Positions 10,074-49,817 of a stretch of DNA of 64,000 nt are shown in pieces. Every line of letters begins with the position of its first letter. The first letter of the stretch is position 1. The notes under the pieces are model-generated. The model ran no database searches and was not told where the DNA came from. It saw only the letters and a list, made by a program, of their open reading frames with translations. The stretch spans positions 62,001-126,000 of the forward strand of contig MKTX01000007.1 in NCBI GenBank assembly GCA_001898465.1, read 5' to 3'. The position numbers and the translations under genes are program-made. Source of the stretch: Sphingobacteriales bacterium 39-19 (lineage in GTDB: Bacteria; Bacteroidota; Bacteroidia; Chitinophagales; Chitinophagaceae).

Positions 10074-10112
10074 GGATATTTCCCTATTTTTAGTAATAGG
10101 ATATTTCCCTAT
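10074..10112 (+). promoter_or_regulatory. tandem GGATATTTCCCTAT boxes, leader of small lipoprotein gene
   Basis: GGATATTTCCCTAT occurs at 10074 and again at 10099, 25 bases apart. The second copy runs directly into the -7 box. Similar boxes precede the 32.9 kb lipoprotein gene. Spacing near two helical turns suggests cooperative binding of a regulator, but no regulator is identified. Confidence 0.45.
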
Positions 10113-10117
10113 GTTTG
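10110..10117 (+). promoter_or_regulatory. -7 box TATGTTTG, 40 bases before ATG
   Basis: TATGTTTG matches TAnnTTTG. The distance from its first base to the ATG at 10150 is 40, exactly the same as at the 32.9 kb lipoprotein locus. Confidence 0.5.
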
Positions 10118-10149
10118 TAAATATAATTTTAACCCCATACCTGATGTTT

Positions 10150-10637
10150 ATGAAATTTAAAGTTAGCCCCCCCACAGGGATTTTGGAGTTCTCACAATCC
10201 TAACAATTGTGTTTTTTGTAGCTTGTAAAAAAATGGACAGCCTGATTACCGCTCCCATGCAGGATGCAAACAGGATCGAAGAAAAGTTTTTCAATACTCC
10301 ATTAAACTTTAATCTTGATATTACACGGGTAACGAATCAATTTGATGAATTAACATATGATGAAAAAATGCTTATTGCGATTTATCCTTTACAAGCATTC
10401 CAAATAAAAATGAATATTCAAGAAGCATTTTCTGCTGCTGACGCTACAGGACTGCCCAATCCTTTAAATGGTAAGCAGGATGCATTTCGGCATGTTTTTT
10501 TTCAGGCAATTAATACCCGGGATGTATCACCAGGATTAATTGGCCCCAATGCTCTTTCTGGTTCTGTTATCGTGTCTCTGTTTGCATTTGCTCATGAATC
10601 CGAAGTGCCAGGCCAACTTCACTTAGAAAAAGAATAG
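10150..10637 (+). CDS. small lipoprotein with AFRH (DUF6973-like) domain, signal peptide out of frame at a C7 run
   Basis: The ORF track starts at a GTG (10209), but ATG AAA TTT at 10150 begins a signal peptide that runs into seven C residues (10167-10173). A -1 shift there gives MKFKVSPPHRDFGVLTILTIVFFVAC, a good lipoprotein signal followed by KKMD as in the 33 and 49 kb lipoproteins. In the plain frame translation stops after 17 codons. The mature part has FFNTP, also shared with the family, then NGKQDAFRHVFFQAI and LFAFAHE, resembling the DUF6973-type domain found at the end of some polymorphic effectors. The normal following motif is missing, so the C-terminus looks truncated. Could be a switchable gene or a decaying one. 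Confidence 0.5.
10167..10173 (+). repeat. C7 tract in signal-peptide codons
   Basis: Seven C bases in codons 6-8 after ATG AAA TTT, read as C CCC CCC in the start frame. A one-base insertion or a -1 ribosomal slip restores the lipoprotein frame. Confidence 0.75.
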
Positions 10638-32300: not shown

Positions 32301-32650
32301 TTAATGGCTGGAGTGGTTCGGGCGGAGATGCCTTTCCCTATTATTTTAAAAAAGAAAAATTAGGCCCCCTGGTGGGCACACGCACCTGGGGCGGGCTCAT
32401 CGGTATTTCGGGTGTGCCTTCGCTTATTGATGGCGGAAGCATTACGGTTCCCAGTTTTAGAATGTATGATGAAAACGGGTGGTTTAAAGAAGGCCATGGC
32501 GTAGACCCGGATATCCAGGTACCTGAAGATTTAGGAGCTTTGGCAAAAGGCGTAGATCCCCAATTAGAAAAAGCCATCGAAACGGTGATGGAATTGATGA
32601 AGACCAAAGGCTTTAGCATACCGAAAGTTCCGGAAGCAGAAAAAAGATAA
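29384..32650 (+). CDS. tricorn protease homologue (S41 peptidase)
   Basis: 1,088 residues with a signal peptide (MKIKFLLIALCMHTMLLAQ). The N-terminal half is a WD/TolB-like propeller with repeated SPDG or SPDS blades (for example FPRFSPDGKNVAF, YPSWSPDGTKLAW, HTFWSPDSKKIA). A basic Lys-rich linker (KKKKEKG) leads to a helical core, a PDZ-like domain (GVNIPEGSYILAVNGIPI) and the serine peptidase region, with the nucleophile in GWSGSGGDAFP near residue 977-979. It is expected to degrade peptides in the periplasm. Confidence 0.93.
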   Translation: MKIKFLLIALCMHTMLLAQNNAGLFRFPDVSASEIVFSYANDLWVVAKNGGQAYKISSPPGQESFPRFSPDGKNVAFTANYDGNFDVYRTSIQGGLPVRLTYFGGTDRVVDWAPDGKNILFASGRESGKERFNQFYSINLNGGPATKLPLAYAEYGSYSPDGSQLAVVFRSQAFRNWKRYRGGTTADIYIFDFKTNTSKNISADTDAGEEFPMWVGNDIYFISDRGKENRMNLWRYNISNGSRQQLTSYTDFDIQFPASGPGDIVYEQGGYIHLFNIASGQDKKVDIHIATDEMALHSRTENVQSLIFNTNISPDGKRVVMEARGDIFSLPATEGFVKNITASSQAADRYPSWSPDGTKLAWWSDETGEYQLYIKDLKNELPAKKITNYKNGFRYHTFWSPDSKKIATIDQAGVIQIISIANGNIEKVDQALRWADGPLRSFTPSWSPDSRYLAYHRDLENQHEGIFIYDADEKKSHTVTSGFYNATNPQFDPGGKYLYLLTGQNFNPVYSDLDNTFVYPNTTMVGVISLQKNTPYVLAPKNDSVTYKITEEEKLPKADSAKVVKKKKEKGIAELKQAAKNTVIDFDGMEERLYLLPVKPGNISNLQATNEKIYYLRFANAGSDGEAASLTYFDLDKKEEKTVMSNVNGYVLNFNTDKALVNAGGKYAVIPVSENAKIDKTVPVAEMVMQIDPKQEWKQMFNDVWRLERDYFYDANMHGVNWAGVKEKYGKLLESALTREDVNYLIGEMIGELNSSHTYQSGGDLERQRKTNVGYLGINWEADADYYKVGKIIRAGIWDAEVHSPLDISGVNIPEGSYILAVNGIPIKTDKEPYAAFAMLADKTVEITYNSKPDFKNAHTAIVKTLSSEFRLRYLNWVEGMRKRVEEATRGEVGYLFVPSTGVDGQNELVRQLNALSDKKALIVDERFNNGGQIPDRFIELLNRKPLVFWATRDGHPWHWPPNVLFGPRVMLINGWSGSGGDAFPYYFKKEKLGPLVGTRTWGGLIGISGVPSLIDGGSITVPSFRMYDENGWFKEGHGVDPDIQVPEDLGALAKGVDPQLEKAIETVMELMKTKGFSIPKVPEAEKR

Positions 32651-32698
32651 TGTTTACTGAGGCATATAAAAAAACTCACCTACGGGTGAGTTTTTTTT
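32643..32698. repeat. terminator-containing direct repeat, left flank of the island
   Basis: AAAGATAATG-TTTACTGAGGCATATAAAAAAACTCACC-type sequence directly after the tricorn gene. A near-identical 56-57 bp copy lies at 37345-37401, so the two bracket the lipoprotein island. Confidence 0.8.
32668..32698. terminator. bidirectional intrinsic terminator after the tricorn protease gene
   Basis: Stem CTCACC/GGTGAG with loop TACG, preceded by A7 and followed by T8. Works in either direction by symmetry. Confidence 0.88.
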
Positions 32699-32880: not shown

Positions 32881-34484
32881 ATGAAATTTAATTACCCCCC
32901 CCCGCAAAGATTGCAGCCTGCTTTGTTATTTCATTAATTGTTTTTGCAGCCTGTAAAAAAATGGATACAGGCTTCTCTGAAAATACAAAGGATATTACTG
33001 CTAAATTTTTTCAAACCACTTCGGCTCCAAATGCTACCGTACAAAGAGTAATGGAAGAAATAAAAAAACGCAATGAGGAAAAAGAATTTATAACTCAGTT
33101 TGCTAAAGAAAATGGGTATCCTGTTTGGAACAAGGTCATAATAGGAACATCAATTCAACAAAATAATGAAACCAGCTTTATAAACAATAACAGCAATGCT
33201 GAAATAGATACTACAATCTTAATCCCTTTTGTATTGGTAGGCGAAAATACAGTAGAGGGGTTTATTAAAGCTGAGGTAAAACAGCGAACTATTGATTTAA
33301 GTTATTCGCTTGCTAAAGATTATAAGGCTTATGAATTTAAGCAAGATAACTCAAGGGCTTCTTCTACCTCATTTGCCTACTTAAATATACTATTAAACAA
33401 AGTGGTTTTTGGTGTAAATGATTATACAATAACCGATCCCCGGTTATTTAGTACCGATACGGGCCATGTGAACAGCAATAATATTCATATTAATGATATG
33501 AATATTACATTTAGTACGGAAAATACTTACAGGTATATTACATTATGTGGTAGTACTACAACCCAATATGGTTTTTGCGGAACTCCGGATTTTTGTAGAC
33601 GTAATAGAGGTTGCGATGCGGGCAATTGCCCTACCGGCCAATGTTATTTTTATTATACTACCAGTACCACTTGTATTTCTACACTGATTCCTCTTCCCGA
33701 CCCCATGCAAGGGGGTGGCGGTACCGGGGGGTATGGAAATACCGGGGAAATACCGCATGCTTATCCCTGTACAACCCCCGATAACCCCACAGACCCTTAC
33801 ACAGCCCAAAGCAATGTGGTTGACCCTGGCAATTGCCCGCCACCATCAGGCGGGCCGGGCTGGGTGCCTGTGCTTATCGAGGAGCCGCCGTTTGATCCAC
33901 CTACAGATTCCATACCCTCAAATATTTCCAGAGCTTGCGATAAGGAACTGGATTCGCTTTACCAATGGGGAATGAACAATCAATTTAGAGAACAGAGTTT
34001 TATTGTTGTTAAAAAAAATGGATCAATATATCTAAAAAATTTTATGCCTGGTTTTCCGGGTGGAGATAAAACGAGAGTTAACTATACACTTGCAGCAGGA
34101 GAGGAATTATTGGCTTACGCACACATACATGCTGAAGATACCGTGAATTTTTACAGATCATCTTTTTCGCCTGATGACTTAATAGAATTTAATAAAAATG
34201 CTTACAATGTTGGTTATACTGCAATATTAGAAGTAGGAAATGCACGCTATGCTTTTGTATTGGAAGACGTACAAATGAAGTCTAATTTTAATATTAGCAA
34301 GATGGGGCAACATAAAAAACTATTTAATGCAAAATTTAATACTTTAACCTTACAATATCCCAATGGTCAAACTTGTTCTGAGCAAACCTGGATTCAGTAT
34401 TTAGGTTCTGCATCTGTTTCGGGCATTGGCTTTTATAAAGCTACTTCTCCCAATAAAAATAATTACATTAAATTAAATCCATAG
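32881..34484 (+). CDS. modular lipoprotein with HxH...FSPDD C-terminal domain; signal peptide out of frame at a C9 run
   Basis: The ORF track starts at 32961, inside the true gene. ATG AAA TTT AAT TAC at 32881 enters nine C bases (32895-32903); a -1 shift or one added C yields MKFNYPPPAKIAACFVISLIVFAAC, a strong lipoprotein signal, then KKMD. The mature protein (about 507 residues) has a conserved N-terminal half with FFQTT, ENGYPVWNK, IPFVLVGENTVEGFI and TDPRLF, a Cys-rich segment, and a Pro/Gly linker ending NCPPPSGGPGW. The C-terminal domain (about the last 190 residues) has AYAHIHAED followed 12 residues later by SPDD, a JAMM-like pattern. A small secreted gene follows one base later. Function unknown; an effector role is inference. 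Confidence 0.72.
32895..32903 (+). repeat. C9 tract in signal-peptide codons
   Basis: Nine C bases beginning at the sixth codon, after ATG AAA TTT AAT TAC. The start frame stops after 18 codons (TAA at 32935); the lipoprotein frame is one base off, as at the C7 tract near 10.17 kb. Confidence 0.8.
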
Positions 34485-34485
34485 A

Positions 34486-34893
34486 ATGATGAATAAAATA
34501 TTATTTAGTCTTCTATTTATCTTTTTGATGAATAAGGCTGGTGCTCAAGTATCATTAGATGCACAATTGAGAAATTTTCCAATTGCGAATTATCTAAATA
34601 AACCTATTGATACATTAATTGCTCATTTACCAAATGGCTTTGATACTGCATTTATTGTAAGTAGTGCTGGAAGTTTGAATCGAGGTGCTTCACTACAAAT
34701 AAATTATCCAAACAATGAATTTTGGATTGATATTTATATTACAAATGCACATTTTATTACTGTTTGGAAAGATCGAACAACTGGGCCTCCGGAGGTGCTT
34801 TGGCCACTTTCTTTATTGCGAAAAGAAAAAATTGGCAGTATTGCCATTTATAATATGTTATGCGAAATTATTAACGAAGGGGATATATACTAA
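34486..34893 (+). CDS. small secreted protein, partner of the 32.9 kb lipoprotein
   Basis: 135 residues (ATG at 34489 also possible) with a signal peptide MNKILFSLLFIFLMNKAGAQ. The mature part of about 113 residues is mixed alpha/beta (FDTAFIVSSAGSLNRGASLQINYPNNEFWIDIYI) and matches no family I know. It starts one base after the lipoprotein stop, so the pair is one transcript. The position is that of an immunity or accessory gene in effector cassettes; that role is inferred only from context. Confidence 0.6.
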   Translation: MMNKILFSLLFIFLMNKAGAQVSLDAQLRNFPIANYLNKPIDTLIAHLPNGFDTAFIVSSAGSLNRGASLQINYPNNEFWIDIYITNAHFITVWKDRTTGPPEVLWPLSLLRKEKIGSIAIYNMLCEIINEGDIY

Positions 34894-35310: not shown

Positions 35311-35719
35311 AAATTGAAAAAAGTGTATGCCTTTGTGCTAATGCCAAACCATATTCATCTTATTTGGAAGCAACTTAATAATAATGGAAAAGAAATGCCT
35401 CAGGGAAGTTTTTTAAAATATACTGCACATGAATTTTTGAAGAAATTGAAACGCCTCAGGGAAGTCAAAAGAACATGAAGTAATAGCGGCAAATAAAAAG
35501 TATGAAATAGGGCAGTGGTATTCTTTAATTGTTGAAATATATAGTCGTGAAGTAGCCAGTCAAAGGTTAGATTATATTCATTTTAATCTGGTTAGCAAAA
35601 AGTGGGAGTTATCTAAAGATGATCTTGATAATTAATATTCATCTGCTTATTTTTATGAAAACGGAACTGATCATTTTGGGTTTTTAAATAATTTGTATGC
35701 GGAATTTGATGGGGATTGA
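35311..35719 (+). pseudogene. REP-associated tyrosine transposase (Y1/RAYT family) remnant
   Basis: Translation in shifting frames gives VYAFVLMPNHIHLIWKQ, with the HxH metal motif of Y1 transposases, then KEMPQGSFLKYTAHEF and, in another frame, SLIVEIYSREVASQRLDYIHFN and YSSAYFYENGTDHFGFL, all in RAYT order. The N-terminal third is missing and there is at least one frameshift with stops. A 13-bp direct repeat (GCCTCAGGGAAGT at 35397 and 35453) marks an internal scar. REP-like hairpins lie on both sides. The element is dead. Confidence 0.82.
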
Positions 35720-36668
35720 GAAGGAGTTGTTTCGTGTGCCACGAACCAGGGCGAAGGAAATACCACATGCTTATCCCTGTACAACTCCCGATAACCCCAC
35801 AGACCCTTATACGGCTCAAAGCAATGTGGTTGACCCAGGTAATTGCCCGCCACCAACAGGCGGGCCGGGCTGGGTGCCGATTGAAGATCAACCTGGTGAA
35901 TATAATCCTTACCAAGCAGATGAAGTAATTATAGATCCTTCCATAAAAAATTATTATCCATGTGTTAGTCGAATTATTGATTCTTTAACGAATTACAGTA
36001 ATATGAATGCACTAGCCCAAGTAGCTTTGCATACTGTTTTTGGTGTGAATGAGAAAATGCATTTAACTTTTAAAACAAATTCTGGTTGGACACAATCGGA
36101 TGATGATGCTGGTACAAAACCAGATAGTTCATTTGTTAGCGAAAGTGGTTTTTACGCTACTATACAATTGAACCCTTGGGTTCTCAAGAATTCCACAGAA
36201 GAATATATTGCATCTACAATTATTCATGAAGCAATACATGCTTATATTGATTTCAAATATTATCAATATATTACAAACCAAATTGATTCTATTGAATTTA
36301 AAACATTATTTCCTATATACTGGCCACCTAATATATCTGGCGGAATTTATATACCACCTGGAAATCTTTCACAACATAAAATTATGGCATCAAATCTGGT
36401 TGCAACAATGACGAATTCATTAATTTCTACATATCCCAATGCCAGCATTTCTCCAGAATTAAGAGATTCAATTTATAGAGGATTAACATGGGGAGGTCTG
36501 CAGCATACTACTGCATTTCTTAGTAGAAGTGATACTTTAGCAATCAAGGCTATTAATATAATAGCAAGAGACACTTCAGTACATGCCCCATTTATATTAA
36601 CAGGGTATCCAACCCCACAATACACATATGATGCTCATAATTTAAACATGAAAATAGGATGCCAATGA
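35697..36668 (+). CDS. 5'-truncated modular lipoprotein: linker plus HExxH C-terminal domain
   Basis: The first 20 or so codons translate transposase and REP sequence, so the real N-terminal half and signal peptide are lost. From about 35755 the frame enters the linker EIPHAYPCTTPDNPTDPYTAQ...GGPGW, almost identical to that of the 32.9 kb gene. The remaining 270 residues form a different C-terminal domain with STIIHEAIHAYIDFKYY (HExxH zinc-protease-like) and a later LRDSIYRGLTWGGLQ. Without a signal peptide it is probably not exported. It overlaps the next small gene by four bases (ATGA). Either an orphan silent cassette or a pseudogene. Confidence 0.65.
   Translation: MRNLMGIEKELFRVPRTRAKEIPHAYPCTTPDNPTDPYTAQSNVVDPGNCPPPTGGPGWVPIEDQPGEYNPYQADEVIIDPSIKNYYPCVSRIIDSLTNYSNMNALAQVALHTVFGVNEKMHLTFKTNSGWTQSDDDAGTKPDSSFVSESGFYATIQLNPWVLKNSTEEYIASTIIHEAIHAYIDFKYYQYITNQIDSIEFKTLFPIYWPPNISGGIYIPPGNLSQHKIMASNLVATMTNSLISTYPNASISPELRDSIYRGLTWGGLQHTTAFLSRSDTLAIKAINIIARDTSVHAPFILTGYPTPQYTYDAHNLNMKIGCQ
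35729..35747. repeat. REP-like hairpin, right of transposase remnant
   Basis: TTCGTG TGC CACGAA stem-loop. CGTGTGCCACGAACC is the exact reverse complement of the left element's 5' part, so the pair is inverted about the transposase. Confidence 0.7.
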
Positions 36669-37285
36669 AAACACTTATCATTATATTGCCTTTCCTGTTA
36701 TTGACTTCTCAAAATTTTGCACAATGCACAAAAGGGGATGTAAATAAAATTAGAAAAAAAATAGAGAATAGGGGATCAAAAACCGAATTGCAAGATTCAG
36801 TTTTGCAGAAACTTAAAATTAATAATGATTTGATTGTGGGTTATTCTAAGTTTAATACGACCTGGATGCATGTTCCTTCCCAATATTTCTTATTTGCTTT
36901 AAATAAGAATGGCTGCATTGGATATCACTATATAATTAAAAAAAATTCAATTAATAATGAAAAGCCATTAACTATTGACTCCGTGATAATACCCAACCAA
37001 ATTGCTAGCATGATATTAACTACAATTGTTAATAATAAAGCTTGGGAGATAAAACGTAATGAAAATGACAGCACTAATATATTTTGTGTAGATGCAATAA
37101 ATAAATTCAACTGCCAGATTTCAGATGCGTCTTATAAATCTTTGATATTATTGACAAAGTCTTCGAATATTGTCTCTACTTTTTATGCACCAGAATACTT
37201 TGAGAACGAATGTTGTCCTGGCAATAAAGACAGGCAAACTTTTATTAAATGCTATAATGTTCTTTACGGGATAATAAAAAATTAA
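36665..37285 (+). CDS. small secreted protein, partner of the HExxH cassette
   Basis: 206 residues from ATG at 36665, which overlaps the cassette stop (ATGA). Signal peptide MKTLIIILPFLLLTSQNFAQ. The mature part contains several Cys (CTKGDVN, GCIGYH, FCVDAINKFNC, ECCPGNKD, KCYN), suggesting disulfides in the periplasm. No family recognised. Position mirrors the small genes after the other two linker lipoproteins. The reading frame is intact although its upstream partner is truncated. Confidence 0.62.
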   Translation: MKTLIIILPFLLLTSQNFAQCTKGDVNKIRKKIENRGSKTELQDSVLQKLKINNDLIVGYSKFNTTWMHVPSQYFLFALNKNGCIGYHYIIKKNSINNEKPLTIDSVIIPNQIASMILTTIVNNKAWEIKRNENDSTNIFCVDAINKFNCQISDASYKSLILLTKSSNIVSTFYAPEYFENECCPGNKDRQTFIKCYNVLYGIIKN

Positions 37286-37344: not shown

Positions 37345-37401
37345 AAAGATAATGATTTTTCTGAGGCATATAAAAAAACTCACCTACGGGTGAGTTTTTT
37401 T
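37345..37401. repeat. terminator-containing direct repeat, right flank of the island
   Basis: AAAGATAATGATTTTTCTGAGGCATATAAAAAAACTCACC-type copy of the left-flank repeat at 32643. Differences are confined to a few bases near the start. Confidence 0.8.
37372..37401. terminator. bidirectional intrinsic terminator between the island and transketolase
   Basis: Same CTCACC TACG GGTGAG hairpin with A7 before and T7 after, serving the convergent small secreted gene and the transketolase gene. Confidence 0.85.
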
Positions 37402-45756: not shown

Positions 45757-47172
45757 ATGAAAAAGCTAATTATTTACGGTGTTTTAATAGCATGCACAGC
45801 ATTGAGCTGCCGTAAAATAGAAGTAGATGGCGATTCAAACGGAGGCGGTTCTACCAATCCGCCACCCACATCAGAGAACATTATTTTAGAGGGGCGTATC
45901 TCGGCCAACCGTACCCTGAAAGCAGAGTACACGTATAAATTACGGGGTTTGGTATATGTAACCAATGGCGCTATTTTAACCATTGAGCCGGGTACAAAGA
46001 TCGTAGGAGAAAACGGCCGCAATGGTGGTTTAATCATCACCCGCAGTTGCCAGATTAAAGCAGAAGGAACCGCAGACAAACCCATTGTATTTACTTCAGA
46101 ATCTACCAATCCGCAAAGAGGCGATTGGGCCGGGATCGTAATTTTGGGTAATGCGCCTACCAATGCATCTTTTAATGGTGTACAAGGTGTAGGCGAAGTA
46201 GAAGGTGGCGTAAACAACAGCGATGGCCTGGGTTTATATGGCACGCCCGCTACACAGCAACAAAACCCCGCCGATAATAGCGGTATCTTAAGATATGTAC
46301 GTATTGAATATGCAGGGTATGCATTTTTACCCGATAAAGAAATTAACGCCTTAACCCTTGGCGGCGTTGGTAGCCAAACAGTCATTGATCATATTCAGAT
46401 CAGCTATTCAAACGATGATGCCATCGAATGGTTTGGTGGTACAGTAAATTGCAAATACCTGATTGCATACAAAACCCTGGATGATGATTTTGATACAGAC
46501 AATGGTTACAATGGCCGGGTTCAGTTCGGTATTATCTTAAGAGATTCAGGTGTTGCAGATATTTCGAAAGTAGAAGGTTTTGAAAGTGATAACGATGCAG
46601 CCGGTAGTTCATTAACGCCTCAAACAGCGCCTGTATTTTCAAACATCACCGTGATTGGACCAAGGGCTACTGCTGCCAACGTAGGCAACGCATATTATTT
46701 AGCCGCAGCGCAGATCCGCAGAAACTCAAGCCTGTCTTTATTTAATTCAGTGATCATGGGTTGGCCCGTTGGTGTTTACATCGATGCTACTAAAGGTATT
46801 CCGGTTGATAATAATATTCCTTATTCATTGTTTATCCAAAACAGCATCATTGCAGGTTGTGCAGAGCCGGTAAAATATAGCATCACCGGTAATAGCAATC
46901 CTCCGCAAACGCCCAATACCACACAAACTATTTTAACCTGGTTTAATACACCTGCTTATGGTAATAGTATTTTGCAAAACAATACCGATGTTGGTTTAGG
47001 TGCTCCATTCAATTATGCAAATCCCGATTTCAACCCTACAGCTGCTTCTGCCGCTACTTCCGGCGCTAGCTTTAGCCATGTAAAATTAAGTACCGGCTTC
47101 AGTGCAGTTACTTACCGCGGCGCTTGCACCGTAGGTGATACCTGGTGGAAGGGTTGGACAAAATTTAACTAA
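45757..47172 (+). CDS. beta-helix lipoprotein, TonB receptor partner
   Basis: 471 residues. MKKLIIYGVLIACTALSC gives a lipobox with Cys18. After a Gly/Pro spacer (SNGGGSTNPPPTSEN) come parallel beta-helix coils: ILTIEPGTKIVGENGRNGGLIITRS, IEYAGYAF, IDHIQISYSNDDAIEWFGGTVNCKYL. It ends VGDTWWKGWTKFN. Cotranscribed with the TonB receptor (30-base gap) and closed by a terminator, so probably the surface-exposed binding subunit of that receptor. Ligand unknown. Confidence 0.8.
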   Translation: MKKLIIYGVLIACTALSCRKIEVDGDSNGGGSTNPPPTSENIILEGRISANRTLKAEYTYKLRGLVYVTNGAILTIEPGTKIVGENGRNGGLIITRSCQIKAEGTADKPIVFTSESTNPQRGDWAGIVILGNAPTNASFNGVQGVGEVEGGVNNSDGLGLYGTPATQQQNPADNSGILRYVRIEYAGYAFLPDKEINALTLGGVGSQTVIDHIQISYSNDDAIEWFGGTVNCKYLIAYKTLDDDFDTDNGYNGRVQFGIILRDSGVADISKVEGFESDNDAAGSSLTPQTAPVFSNITVIGPRATAANVGNAYYLAAAQIRRNSSLSLFNSVIMGWPVGVYIDATKGIPVDNNIPYSLFIQNSIIAGCAEPVKYSITGNSNPPQTPNTTQTILTWFNTPAYGNSILQNNTDVGLGAPFNYANPDFNPTAASAATSGASFSHVKLSTGFSAVTYRGACTVGDTWWKGWTKFN

Positions 47173-47323: not shown

Positions 47324-47560
47324 TTATAGCTCCGGCGTATATTTATGAATTCTATCTTCCAGATATTTTGCAAAATGTTTTCCCCATTCTTCTGTACCAT
47401 ATCCTACTTTTATATCGGCAGGGGTGCCTGTAAATTTAAGGGTATAAGTACCATCACTAGCGGCCATGGTAACATAGTAATCGGCAAAATTACCCGAGCT
47501 TAGGTTTAAATAAATAAGCTGCATTAAAACATCTACATCAGCCGGGCTAAAAATTGAAAC
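47324..47560 (-). pseudogene. orphan C-terminal cassette fragment (copy of the 48 kb lipoprotein tail)
   Basis: No start of its own in the homologous part. From IFSPADVDVLMQLIY to FAKY (bases 47554 down to 47363) it is the same 64 residues as the tail of the 48-49.8 kb lipoprotein, with one amino-acid difference (Gly for Arg before KHF); six of seven base differences are synonymous. It then diverges and stops after a different short end. It lies directly behind the stop of the small secreted gene, as displaced cassette tails do in polymorphic effector loci. Confidence 0.8.
47363..47554. repeat. 192-bp direct repeat, copy 1
   Basis: About 96% identical (seven differences counted by eye) to 48321-48512. 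Encodes the shared IFSPAD...FAKY segment. Confidence 0.85.
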
Positions 47561-48141
47561 TATTGTTTTGTTAAACCCATGTTTCTTGGAAAAATAGTTC
47601 TGTAATTTCCATACCCCCCGGGGCAATTTGAAGGATCAAATAGATCACCGCCTCTTATAAAAGAAATTGACATTTTTGTGGAGTCAATAGTTCTTAAAGA
47701 AATAAAGATATCTCCCCAATCATTGCATTCAGAGTTAGCGCCAAAATACATATTATAAACCCTTGGTGTGCCAAAATTTTTGCCAAACATTGATGTATTT
47801 GAATCGGAACTATCTAAATCATTAAACAATACCTGGTTGGTTAAAGAGTCTTTAACAAGCACACGGCCAATTAGAGCATCCCATTTAATGCCGTCACCCG
47901 GCAGGCCAAAATCCCATGCTGTTTTTTTAGTAAACCTCACTTCGTAAAGCCAGCCTGCATTACTGCCTTTCCAAATACCAATAAAAGGGTCAAGCTTGTG
48001 GTTAATGTCTTTTACATAATTTACTGTTGCCGGAAAAAGACTGTCTCCTGTATAAGTGGCAGCCTGCTCTAATGATATTACAGATTGTGCTTTTGCTGTA
48101 TTGAAGCAGCATGAAAAAGCAATAATAATTAAATGTTTCAT
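47560..48141 (-). CDS. small secreted protein, partner of the 48 kb lipoprotein
   Basis: 193 residues from ATG at 48141 (the track's first codon is TTG). Signal peptide MKHLIIIAFSCCFNTAKAQ. The mature part has IGIWKGSNAGWLYEVRFTKK and DWGDIFISLRTIDSTKMSISFIRGGDLFDPSNC, beta-rich and lipocalin-like in pattern, but no family is recognised. It starts 11 bases after the lipoprotein stop, so it belongs to that transcript. Its 3' end sits at the junction with the duplicated cassette fragment. Confidence 0.65.
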   Translation of the reverse strand: MKHLIIIAFSCCFNTAKAQSVISLEQAATYTGDSLFPATVNYVKDINHKLDPFIGIWKGSNAGWLYEVRFTKKTAWDFGLPGDGIKWDALIGRVLVKDSLTNQVLFNDLDSSDSNTSMFGKNFGTPRVYNMYFGANSECNDWGDIFISLRTIDSTKMSISFIRGGDLFDPSNCPGGYGNYRTIFPRNMGLTKQ

Positions 48142-48152
48142 ATACAAAAGTT

Positions 48153-49817
48153 TTAAGGGCAGGGTGTTTTAATAATTTTATTATTTACGGTAAGCGTTAC
48201 CTGGTCAATGGTATCATTGCTGTTTATTTTATATAAACCTACCCCGTTAAGCTGCATTACATCTCTCAGGTATGTTAAAAATGTTTTTTCCAGTCCATAT
48301 TTTTTTAACCAGTCGTTACAATATTTTGCAAAATGCTTTCTCCATTCTTCTGTGCCATATCCTACTTTTATATCGGCAGGAGTGCCTGTAAATTTAAGGG
48401 TATAAGTACCATCACTAGCGGCCATGGTAACATAATAATCGGCAAAATTGCCCGAGCTTAGGTTTAAATAAATAAGCTGCATTAAAACATCTACATCAGC
48501 GGGGCTAAAAATGCGGATGGGTTTATTTAAAGTAGTTTCTTCATCACCATAAATATTAATAGATGTTACTTCATAATCGTTCAAATGGTTATGCGAAAAG
48601 CCTTTGATTGTGCTATCTACAGGAGCTTCTATTGCGTCTGAATTGCTGGTAGATGGGGCAGGTACAAGCGCCGTAAACTGGTTTTGTTTATTTTCACTAA
48701 AGCCCGCTTCTTTTTTTTCGTTAAACTTTGTTTTAAGGTAGCTAATTCTGTTTTTATAGGCTGTATCTGCGTTTTGTACCTTTAATACAGCGCAGGGGTC
48801 ATAAACGTCTTCTATAGGTATTGGCTCCCAGCCAGGACCTCCTGTTGCGGGAGGGCATTCAGGTAAATCTTCGGGCGGTACTATTTGGCTGGTATTTACT
48901 ACATTACTACCTGTATTGCACAGGTAATAGTATGGTATGCCCCCAGTTTCGCCACCTCCTGTACTGGGTACACCGGTAGTTCCTCCACCGGTATATATCC
49001 CATTGTCCCACTCTATGCCTATTATATAACAATTATTATATACAGCTTCAATGCCACAGGATACTTTTTTAATATTCTGTTGTGTTTTGGCAGCCGGGCA
49101 ATTCCATGTAATACTAACAGAAGATTGTGCGCATTGGTAAATAACTGTTATGTTATTTTGTTGCTGGAGTGAATCAGAAAAACCAACGGTTAGTGTAGCT
49201 GTATCACTTTCCTGTGGCCTAAACAAGCTATGGTCAGTTACTTTAAAATGAGAATAGCCAAATATCATTTTTTCAAACTGCATCATCAGGCTGGCATAGT
49301 TCTCTGCTGTGTTTAATGAGCTTTCATTTACATTATAATCTAATAACTTATAATCTTGCGTAAGCCGGTATCTAAAATCCATACTATCTCCCGGACTTAG
49401 CTTTACTTCAATAAAACCTGCAACCCTTTGACTGCCCTGCTTCACAAATGGGATACAAATAAGGGTGTCATTTGAATTATTGTTTGAAGCAGAAGAAACA
49501 AAACTTTGTGGATTTTGGCTATTCTTCATAGTAGCAAGTGTTTTATTCCAAACAGGGTATCCATTTTTTAAGGCAAATGCAGTAACAAAGGGCTTCAGTT
49601 CGTTTTTATGTTGCAATGTTTTTATGATTCTTTTCGTAAGATCGTCAGTACCTTCTGGGGTATTAAAAAAATCTCTTGTAACTGCAATAATGTTAGCATT
49701 TGGAGAATCCGTATCCATTTTTTTGCATGAAATAATAAAGAAAATAATGGAGAAATAAAAAAGCAGTTGTTTAAGAGTACGAATTATTTTAATAAGCGGA
49801 TAGTTATTTGTTTTCAT
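48153..49817 (-). CDS. modular lipoprotein with HNH...FSPAD C-terminal domain (intact signal peptide)
   Basis: 554 residues. The signal runs LLFYFSIIFFIISC followed by KKMD, in frame and without a poly-C run. The N-terminal half shares FFNTP, LKNGYPVWNK, IPFVKQGSQRVAGFI and TDHSLFRP with the 32.9 kb gene. The linker is Gly/Thr-rich (TGGGTTGVPSTGGGETGG) and ends ECPPATGGPGW. The C-terminal domain (about 200 residues) carries GFSHNHLND and, 25 residues later, IFSPADVDVLMQL, the same HxH...SPxD order as the 32.9 kb protein, consistent with a JAMM-like hydrolase. A secreted small gene and a cassette duplicate follow. Function unknown. Confidence 0.75.
   Translation of the reverse strand: MKTNNYPLIKIIRTLKQLLFYFSIIFFIISCKKMDTDSPNANIIAVTRDFFNTPEGTDDLTKRIIKTLQHKNELKPFVTAFALKNGYPVWNKTLATMKNSQNPQSFVSSASNNNSNDTLICIPFVKQGSQRVAGFIEVKLSPGDSMDFRYRLTQDYKLLDYNVNESSLNTAENYASLMMQFEKMIFGYSHFKVTDHSLFRPQESDTATLTVGFSDSLQQQNNITVIYQCAQSSVSITWNCPAAKTQQNIKKVSCGIEAVYNNCYIIGIEWDNGIYTGGGTTGVPSTGGGETGGIPYYYLCNTGSNVVNTSQIVPPEDLPECPPATGGPGWEPIPIEDVYDPCAVLKVQNADTAYKNRISYLKTKFNEKKEAGFSENKQNQFTALVPAPSTSNSDAIEAPVDSTIKGFSHNHLNDYEVTSINIYGDEETTLNKPIRIFSPADVDVLMQLIYLNLSSGNFADYYVTMAASDGTYTLKFTGTPADIKVGYGTEEWRKHFAKYCNDWLKKYGLEKTFLTYLRDVMQLNGVGLYKINSNDTIDQVTLTVNNKIIKTPCP
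48321..48512. repeat. 192-bp direct repeat, copy 2
   Basis: Lies inside the C-terminal cassette of the 48-49.8 kb lipoprotein; matches 47363-47554. Confidence 0.85.

What the first reader, a model, noticed from the sequence alone, without database searches (positions are those of the whole stretch)
47324..48512. Orphan cassette tail created by a 192-bp duplication with almost only synonymous changes
Seen: 47363-47554 duplicates 48321-48512 with seven differences, six synonymous; the orphan has no start and its 3' end differs. It lies behind the partner gene, as displaced toxin tails do in contact-dependent systems. The synonymous bias suggests past selection on both copies or repeated gene conversion.
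Basis: partly seen in the sequence, partly recalled or inferred. Interest (0 to 1): 0.7.

Follow-up and report, generated by a model that had tools for sequence, protein, structure and literature searches.

The report
Scar of a swapped toxin tail
Beside a gene that looks like an interbacterial toxin with an exchangeable tail lies a 192-base headless piece of a sister tail, most likely the leftover of an older version pushed aside when a new tail-plus-immunity cassette moved in; the same thing has happened repeatedly in related bacteria.

Summary
In detail: 47363-47554 matches 48321-48512 with 7 differences, 6 synonymous (chance 0.0005-0.003 under neutrality). The gene at 48153-49817 belongs to a lineage-specific family of lipoproteins in a Chitinophagaceae genus. 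About 60 members share a head but carry exchangeable tails (JAB-like, AHH nuclease, Tae4 amidase, SprT-like, DUF6973), each followed by a tail-specific partner gene (DUF6705 here; Imm11 behind AHH). This is a polymorphic toxin-immunity system; activity is inferred, not shown. Tail exchange is visible: two genes of one genome share 1,011 bp of head at 98.6% but have unrelated tails, and an AHH-tail/Imm11 cassette is 96% identical between two species, headless here, head-attached there. Headless tail fragments recur, including a complete orphan cassette in this window (35697-36668). Most fragment/resident pairs show the same synonymous bias (dN/dS about 0.04-0.2) at dS 0.16-0.7. So the orphan is best read as the scar of a displaced allele, not a duplicate kept by selection. 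It lacks the catalytic HxH, a start, the true C-terminus and its own immunity gene, so it is not a usable cassette. Phase variation (poly-C tracts in sister heads) is a separate, unproven novelty.

The parts
48153..49817 (-). Full-length toxin-like lipoprotein, 554 aa: signal peptide with lipobox (FFIISC-KKMD), family head (about residues 30-230), Gly/Pro linker, tail of the class called JAB-C here (E..HNH..FSPAD)
   Evidence: ORF; head conserved in 24 relatives, C30/K32/G85/W89/P122 invariant; tail alignment with invariant H, H, F, D
48321..48512 (-). Resident copy of the 192-bp tail core (IFSPAD...HFAKY)
47560..48147 (-). Partner gene, DUF6705 (PF20448), Sec signal peptide (ATG at 48141); predicted immunity protein
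   Evidence: Pfam above gathering score; DUF6705-like partners behind the other JAB-C tails and across the phylum
47363..47554 (-). Orphan copy of the 192-bp tail core; begins 5 nt after the partner's stop codon
47324..47626 (-). Open frame carrying the orphan core; no ATG, no HxH, own 12-residue end LEDRIHKYTPEL without relatives
32892..34484 (+). Second family member in the window: head with a 9-C tract at 32895-32903 (out of frame with the upstream ATG), JAB-like tail of another subclass
34486..34893 (+). Its partner gene (secreted, 135 aa), same partner class as behind similar tails in other species
35697..36668 (+). Complete orphan cassette: shared linker plus SprT-like (PF10263) tail, no head; 46% identical to a head-attached tail in another species (L059)
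36659..37285 (+). Secreted partner gene of the orphan SprT-like tail
33746..33868 (+). Linker shared with 35756-35878 (123 bp, 93.5%; 7 synonymous, 1 nonsynonymous difference)
35756..35878 (+). Linker copy in the orphan cassette
10079..10637 (+). Deletion relic: repeated leader, head start with 7-C tract, fused to a DUF6973-like tail

Best explanation
The locus belongs to a polymorphic toxin-immunity family anchored by a lipoprotein head (inferred: the head displays or delivers the toxin, the tail is the toxic domain, the partner protects the producer). New tail-plus-partner cassettes recombine into a resident gene; the right-hand end of the incoming piece lies just behind its immunity gene, so what is left of the old tail is pushed downstream without a head. 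The 192-bp orphan is such a remnant of an older allele of the same tail class. It diverged from the present tail while both were intact genes under purifying selection, hence the synonymous bias; with or after displacement it lost its own 5' half, true C-terminus and immunity gene. Shown: head/tail modularity, tail/partner pairing, recurrent headless tails, cross-species movement of a tail-immunity cassette, synonymous bias in most pairs. Inferred: toxicity, immunity, surface location, the order of events at this locus.
For: Shared head, different tails: Tae4, AHH, DUF6973, SprT-like, DUF3289 and DUF4329-like tails by Pfam. Tail/partner pairing: 100 of 101 pairs of loci with the same partner class share the tail class, shuffled mean 27.6, maximum 54 in 2,000 shuffles. 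A known immunity family, Imm11, lies behind the AHH tail fragment. Head shared within one genome: 1,011 bp at 98.6% identity, then unrelated tails. Tail-plus-Imm11 cassette 986 bp at 96% between two species, headless in this genome and head-attached in the other. Headless tail pieces next to or behind partner genes in L042, L052, L086, L094, L113, L088 and the window itself. Synonymous bias (dN/dS 0.04-0.2, dS 0.16-0.7) in the finding, L042, L052, L094, L088 and the shared linker. The closest tail relatives (36%) and closest partner relatives (41%) occur in the same set of loci under other heads in another class, while the closest heads are in the genus itself.
Against: Only seven differences, so gene conversion or an old duplication with intermittent selection is not excluded. 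No intact second allele with this core was found in any other genome, so displacement was not seen directly. The cross-species AHH pair shows no synonymous bias (2 synonymous, 5 nonsynonymous). No toxicity data exist for the JAB-C tail. Fold searches of tail and head models found no solved relative.
Confidence: 0.72

Rival explanations
1. Plain tandem duplication of a roughly 958-bp unit (tail piece, tail end, partner gene) followed by deletion of most of the second copy; the synonymous bias is chance or the work of gene conversion with the selected copy.
For: The two copies are in direct orientation 958 bp apart; tandem arrays of partner genes exist in relatives, such as five copies in L054.
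Against: A headless, start-less copy should gather nonsynonymous changes; P of the observed pattern is 0.0005-0.003, and the same bias is seen in independent pairs at dS 0.3-0.7.
Confidence: 0.17
2. The orphan is kept as a donor: recombination through the 192 bp replaces the resident's 3' end and so changes the toxin.
For: Recombination between a main gene and an orphan fragment is documented for Rhs in Salmonella (PMC3967940: 522 bp at 95% identity); the shared stretch here is similar in kind.
Against: The fusion would lose the last 48 or so residues, with the conserved end of JAB-C tails, gain 12 residues without relatives, and delete the DUF6705 gene with no other immunity gene behind it.
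Confidence: 0.06
3. Not a toxin system: a family of surface lipoproteins with variable enzymatic domains (nutrition or envelope remodelling), the partners being chaperones or inhibitors.
For: No member has been tested; JAB-like and SprT-like domains can be ordinary peptidases.
Against: Tae4, AHH with Imm11, and class-specific partners in arrays are hallmarks of interbacterial toxins; headless tails with partners make little sense for housekeeping enzymes.
Confidence: 0.05

Closest known systems
Orphan cdiA-CT/cdiI and rhs-CT/rhsI modules (PMC3150448, PMC3967940)
   Same: Headless C-terminal toxin pieces behind the main gene and its immunity gene, without start signals; some known ones even lack the VENN motif and an immunity gene, as here
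   Different: No CdiA-type head, Rhs repeats or VENN motif; the shared stretch lies inside the tail and not upstream of it
SitA/SitI lipoprotein toxins of myxobacteria (PMC5562445, PMC8546572)
   Same: Lipoproteins with a conserved N-terminal escort part, polymorphic C-terminal toxin parts and cognate immunity genes
   Different: Other phylum; sequence relation of the heads not tested; outer membrane exchange unknown here; many tails and partners here point to the periplasm, whereas SitA tails are nucleases acting in the cytoplasm
Lineage-specific toxin heads (MafB-N, Microscilla-N, Amoebophilus APD1/APD2; PMC3482391)
   Same: A head confined to one lineage, constant while tails vary; APD1/2 also follow a lipobox
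   Different: No Pfam or NCBIfam model was found for this head; APD tails are thought to be aimed at the eukaryotic host and not swapped serially
Tox-JAB-2 / DUF4329 (PMC3482391)
   Same: E..HxH..S..D motif; one sister tail (L017) matches DUF4329 at E 9.5e-5, and its class aligns with the class of the finding at 98.6% hhalign probability
   Different: The finding's own tail matches no Pfam model; fold not confirmed

Membership tests
Polymorphic toxin system | Conserved N-terminal part with many unrelated C-terminal domains | tested here: met
Polymorphic toxin system | Cognate, tail-specific downstream immunity gene | tested here: met
   Association 100 of 101 against shuffled maximum 54; Imm11 behind AHH; DUF6705 behind JAB-C tails at 12 of 13 places in the phylum sample. 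Protection itself is not testable with these tools
Polymorphic toxin system | Known toxin domains among the tails | tested here: met
   Tae4 5.5e-21, AHH 5.8e-8, DUF3289 1.2e-15
Polymorphic toxin system | Tail is toxic, partner neutralises it | not testable with these tools
   needs expression assays
Orphan toxin/immunity module (CDI/Rhs sense) | Headless tail coding sequence lacking translation start, behind the main pair | tested here: met
Orphan toxin/immunity module (CDI/Rhs sense) | Intact tail domain with its own immunity gene | tested here: not met
   No HxH, no true C-terminus, no partner gene between the orphan and the convergent gene at 45757-47172; met by the other orphan at 35697-37285
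CDI (CdiA/CdiB two-partner secretion) | Haemagglutination/TPS domain in the head, or VENN motif | tested here: not met
   No such Pfam match in any of 28 members; no VENN in the sequence
Rhs toxin | RHS/YD repeats in the head | tested here: not met
   no such Pfam match
SitA lipoprotein toxin | SitA escort domain | not tested
   no SitA sequence was compared
Tox-JAB-2 (DUF4329) | E, HxH, S, D residues | tested here: met
Tox-JAB-2 (DUF4329) | Significant profile match of the finding's tail | tested here: not met
   linked only by way of sister classes
Tox-JAB-2 (DUF4329) | JAB fold | tested here: inconclusive
   model pLDDT 76 but no PDB match
DUF6705 (PF20448), partner gene | Score over the gathering cut-off | tested here: met
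   25.2 against 24.4 bits

The most novel reading that the evidence does not exclude
The family is a phase-variable, lipid-anchored polymorphic toxin arsenal. Poly-C tracts at the start of the sister head genes (13 of 66 heads; 5 of the 13 C9+ tracts of this genome) switch heads on and off by slippage, so cells of one clone would display different subsets of tails, while headless tail fragments such as this one record past cassette swaps. The gene of the finding itself has no such tract.
Probability: 0.4. Interest if true: 0.7.

Novelty: new member of a known kind. Interest (0 to 1): 0.5.

Why it matters
It identifies a toxin family for which no description was found, in environmental Chitinophagaceae, with a head for which no Pfam or NCBIfam model was found; it predicts a function (immunity) for DUF6705; and it shows that headless tail scars can be read as a fossil record of cassette swaps. 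Their synonymous-biased divergence says that what is displaced is usually a divergent functional allele and not a fresh duplicate, which bears on how polymorphic toxins turn over.

Tried and rejected
Foldseek of the tail model and of the head model against the PDB: no significant match. Other genomes carrying the orphan core: none. Two alignment calls with wrong frames failed and were redone. The first dN/dS run without trimming mixed in unrelated flanks; the trimmed run is, but its AHH row is in a wrong frame, so the in-frame count (2 synonymous, 5 nonsynonymous) is the one to use there, and its L113 row includes unrelated flank (the in-frame core has 10 synonymous and 2 nonsynonymous changes). 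Clustering tails on the last 220 residues merged classes through the shared linker; it was repeated on the last 130, which still merges three JAB subclasses and so understates the pairing. Papers on DUF6705, on Chitinophagaceae polymorphic toxins and on phase-variable polymorphic toxins: no description of this family found.

Full report
OBSERVATION. The repeat is real and exactly placed: 47363-47554 and 48321-48512 (minus strand), 192 bp without gaps, seven differences, six of them synonymous in the shared reading frame and one R/G. Given the codons, six or more synonymous changes out of seven have a probability of 0.0005 to 0.003 under neutrality. The orphan core starts 5 nt after the stop codon of the partner gene, has no ATG, and ends in 12 codons unrelated to the resident's end of about 48 residues. 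Neither core nor end was found anywhere else in the genome or in 93 same-genus genomes.

THE GENE AND ITS FAMILY. The 554-residue protein at 48153-49817 begins with a signal peptide and lipobox (FFIISCKKMD), followed by a head of about 200 residues, a Gly/Pro-rich linker and a tail. No Pfam model matches it and no NCBIfam model passes its cut-off. Nine matches lie in the same genome, and a head profile finds the family in many genomes of the same genus but only marginally elsewhere in the order sample; named relatives are mostly metagenome genomes labelled Chitinophagaceae, Sphingobacteriales or Bacteroidetes, plus Sediminibacterium soli. The heads share an invariant lipobox Cys, K32, G85, W89 and P122. 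The tails fall into unrelated classes: Tae4 amidase, AHH nuclease, DUF6973, SprT-like metallopeptidase, DUF3289 and DUF4329/JAB-like.

TAIL-PARTNER PAIRING. Each tail is as a rule followed directly by a small gene, mostly with a Sec signal peptide or lipobox (periplasm or envelope), but without one behind AHH nucleases, where it is Imm11, a known immunity family. Of 101 pairs of loci with the same partner class, 100 share the tail class; shuffling gives 27.6 on average and 54 at most in 2,000 trials. The tail class of the finding, called JAB-C here, has the motif E..HxH..FSxxD and is paired with DUF6705-like partners. The pairing is general: of 13 distinct DUF6705 places sampled across the phylum, 12 lie behind a JAB-C-like tail, often under unrelated lipoprotein heads (one of the 12 is a member of the JAB-C model itself). 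The nearest tails (36%) and nearest partners (41%) of the finding occur in the same group of loci in another class, whereas its nearest heads are in its own genus or close to it. Head and tail-partner cassette therefore have different histories.

TAIL EXCHANGE. In genome G026 two toxins share 1,011 bp (98.6%) from upstream of the start to the linker and then have unrelated tails. Conversely, a 986-bp stretch with the 3' part of an AHH tail plus Imm11 is 96% identical between G026, where it is attached to a head, and the genome of this window, where it is headless.

HEADLESS TAILS RECUR. In this window 35697-36668 is a complete orphan: linker and SprT-like tail without head, followed by its own partner, behind a JAB-tailed toxin and its partner, with the linker shared at 93.5%. 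Its tail is 46% identical to a head-attached tail in another species. Shorter pieces like the one in the finding lie next to toxins in L042, L052, L086, L094, L088 and L113. Several begin within a few tens of bases of the stop codon of the preceding partner gene, which is what insertion of a tail-plus-partner cassette into an existing tail would leave behind (inference).

WHY THE SYNONYMOUS BIAS. For same-locus pairs, trimmed to the homologous core, the counts of synonymous:nonsynonymous changes are 6:1 (finding), 7:2 (L042), 14.5:9.5 (L052), 11.7:5.3 (L094), 33:30 (L088, 150 codons) and 7:1 (shared linker in the window), with dS from 0.16 to 0.7; for L113 the in-frame core gives 10:2. A headless copy should drift neutrally. 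Divergences this deep with such bias are expected if both sequences evolved as intact genes in different lineages and one was then displaced. The cross-species AHH orphan, recent by its dS, shows no bias (2:5), as expected of a headless copy. With seven changes the finding alone cannot separate this from gene conversion.

IS THE ORPHAN A USABLE CASSETTE? Unlikely. It contains only the FSPAD half of the JAMM-like motif and none of the HxH half, lacks the conserved end of JAB-C tails, and no partner gene follows before the convergent gene at 45757-47172. Recombination through the 192 bp would delete the DUF6705 gene and give a tail with a foreign 12-residue end. Such degenerate orphans are known in CDI loci: fragments without VENN and without immunity gene occur in Klebsiella variicola and Erwinia pyrifoliae (PMC3150448). 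Intact orphans can be re-attached, as shown for Rhs in Salmonella (PMC3967940).

STRUCTURE. The tail model (mean pLDDT 76) and the head model (76) have no significant match among solved structures. The JAB assignment rests on the motif, on a DUF4329 match of a sister tail (E 9.5e-5) and on profile-profile comparison of the tail classes (98.6% and 96.7% probability; the first of these alignments includes part of the shared linker). It is probable, not proven.

PLACE AMONG KNOWN SYSTEMS. It works like a polymorphic toxin system with orphan tails. It is not CDI or Rhs: no TPS domain, VENN motif or RHS repeats. The closest parallels are SitA lipoprotein toxins (PMC8546572) and lineage-specific toxin heads such as MafB-N, Microscilla-N and the lipobox-bearing APD1/2 (PMC3482391); whether the head is related to SitA escort domains was not tested.

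Noticed in passing
window 32895-32903, 10167-10173; L041, L042, L043, L044, L046, L059, L060, L071, L073: Poly-C tracts of 7-12 C a few codons after the start of head genes in 13 of 66 members; from the upstream ATG nearly all read out of frame in the assemblies, one (L041) in frame. 5 of the 13 C9+ tracts in the genome lie in head genes: candidate phase variation.
   Followed up: partly
L130 (G000 contig 1, about 378-381 kb): Array of headless tails away from any head: JAB-C tail with DUF6705, then a tail with the sequence look of an LRAT/NlpC-type enzyme (by eye only), with its partner.
   Followed up: partly
L041 1-2673 (G000 contig 18): Contig begins inside a linker and tail; next to it a headless AHH tail piece with Imm11. 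Contigs 7, 12 and 18 all break in or at family genes, two of them inside heads about 92% identical in DNA.
   Followed up: partly
window 32643-32697 and 37345-37401: 57-bp direct repeat (95%) with a terminator-like hairpin flanks the whole second toxin locus.
   Followed up: no
window 35311-35632: Scraps resembling a REP-associated (RAYT-type) transposase lie between the second toxin's partner and its orphan cassette (by eye only).
   Followed up: no
L054 1809-4558: Five tandem paralogous partner genes behind one JAB-tailed toxin.
   Followed up: no
L127 1501-3604: In a bacterium of the same class but another family: toxin tail, its partner, then an 80-residue headless JAB-C tail end with DUF6705, the same layout as in the finding but with the immunity gene kept.
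   Followed up: partly
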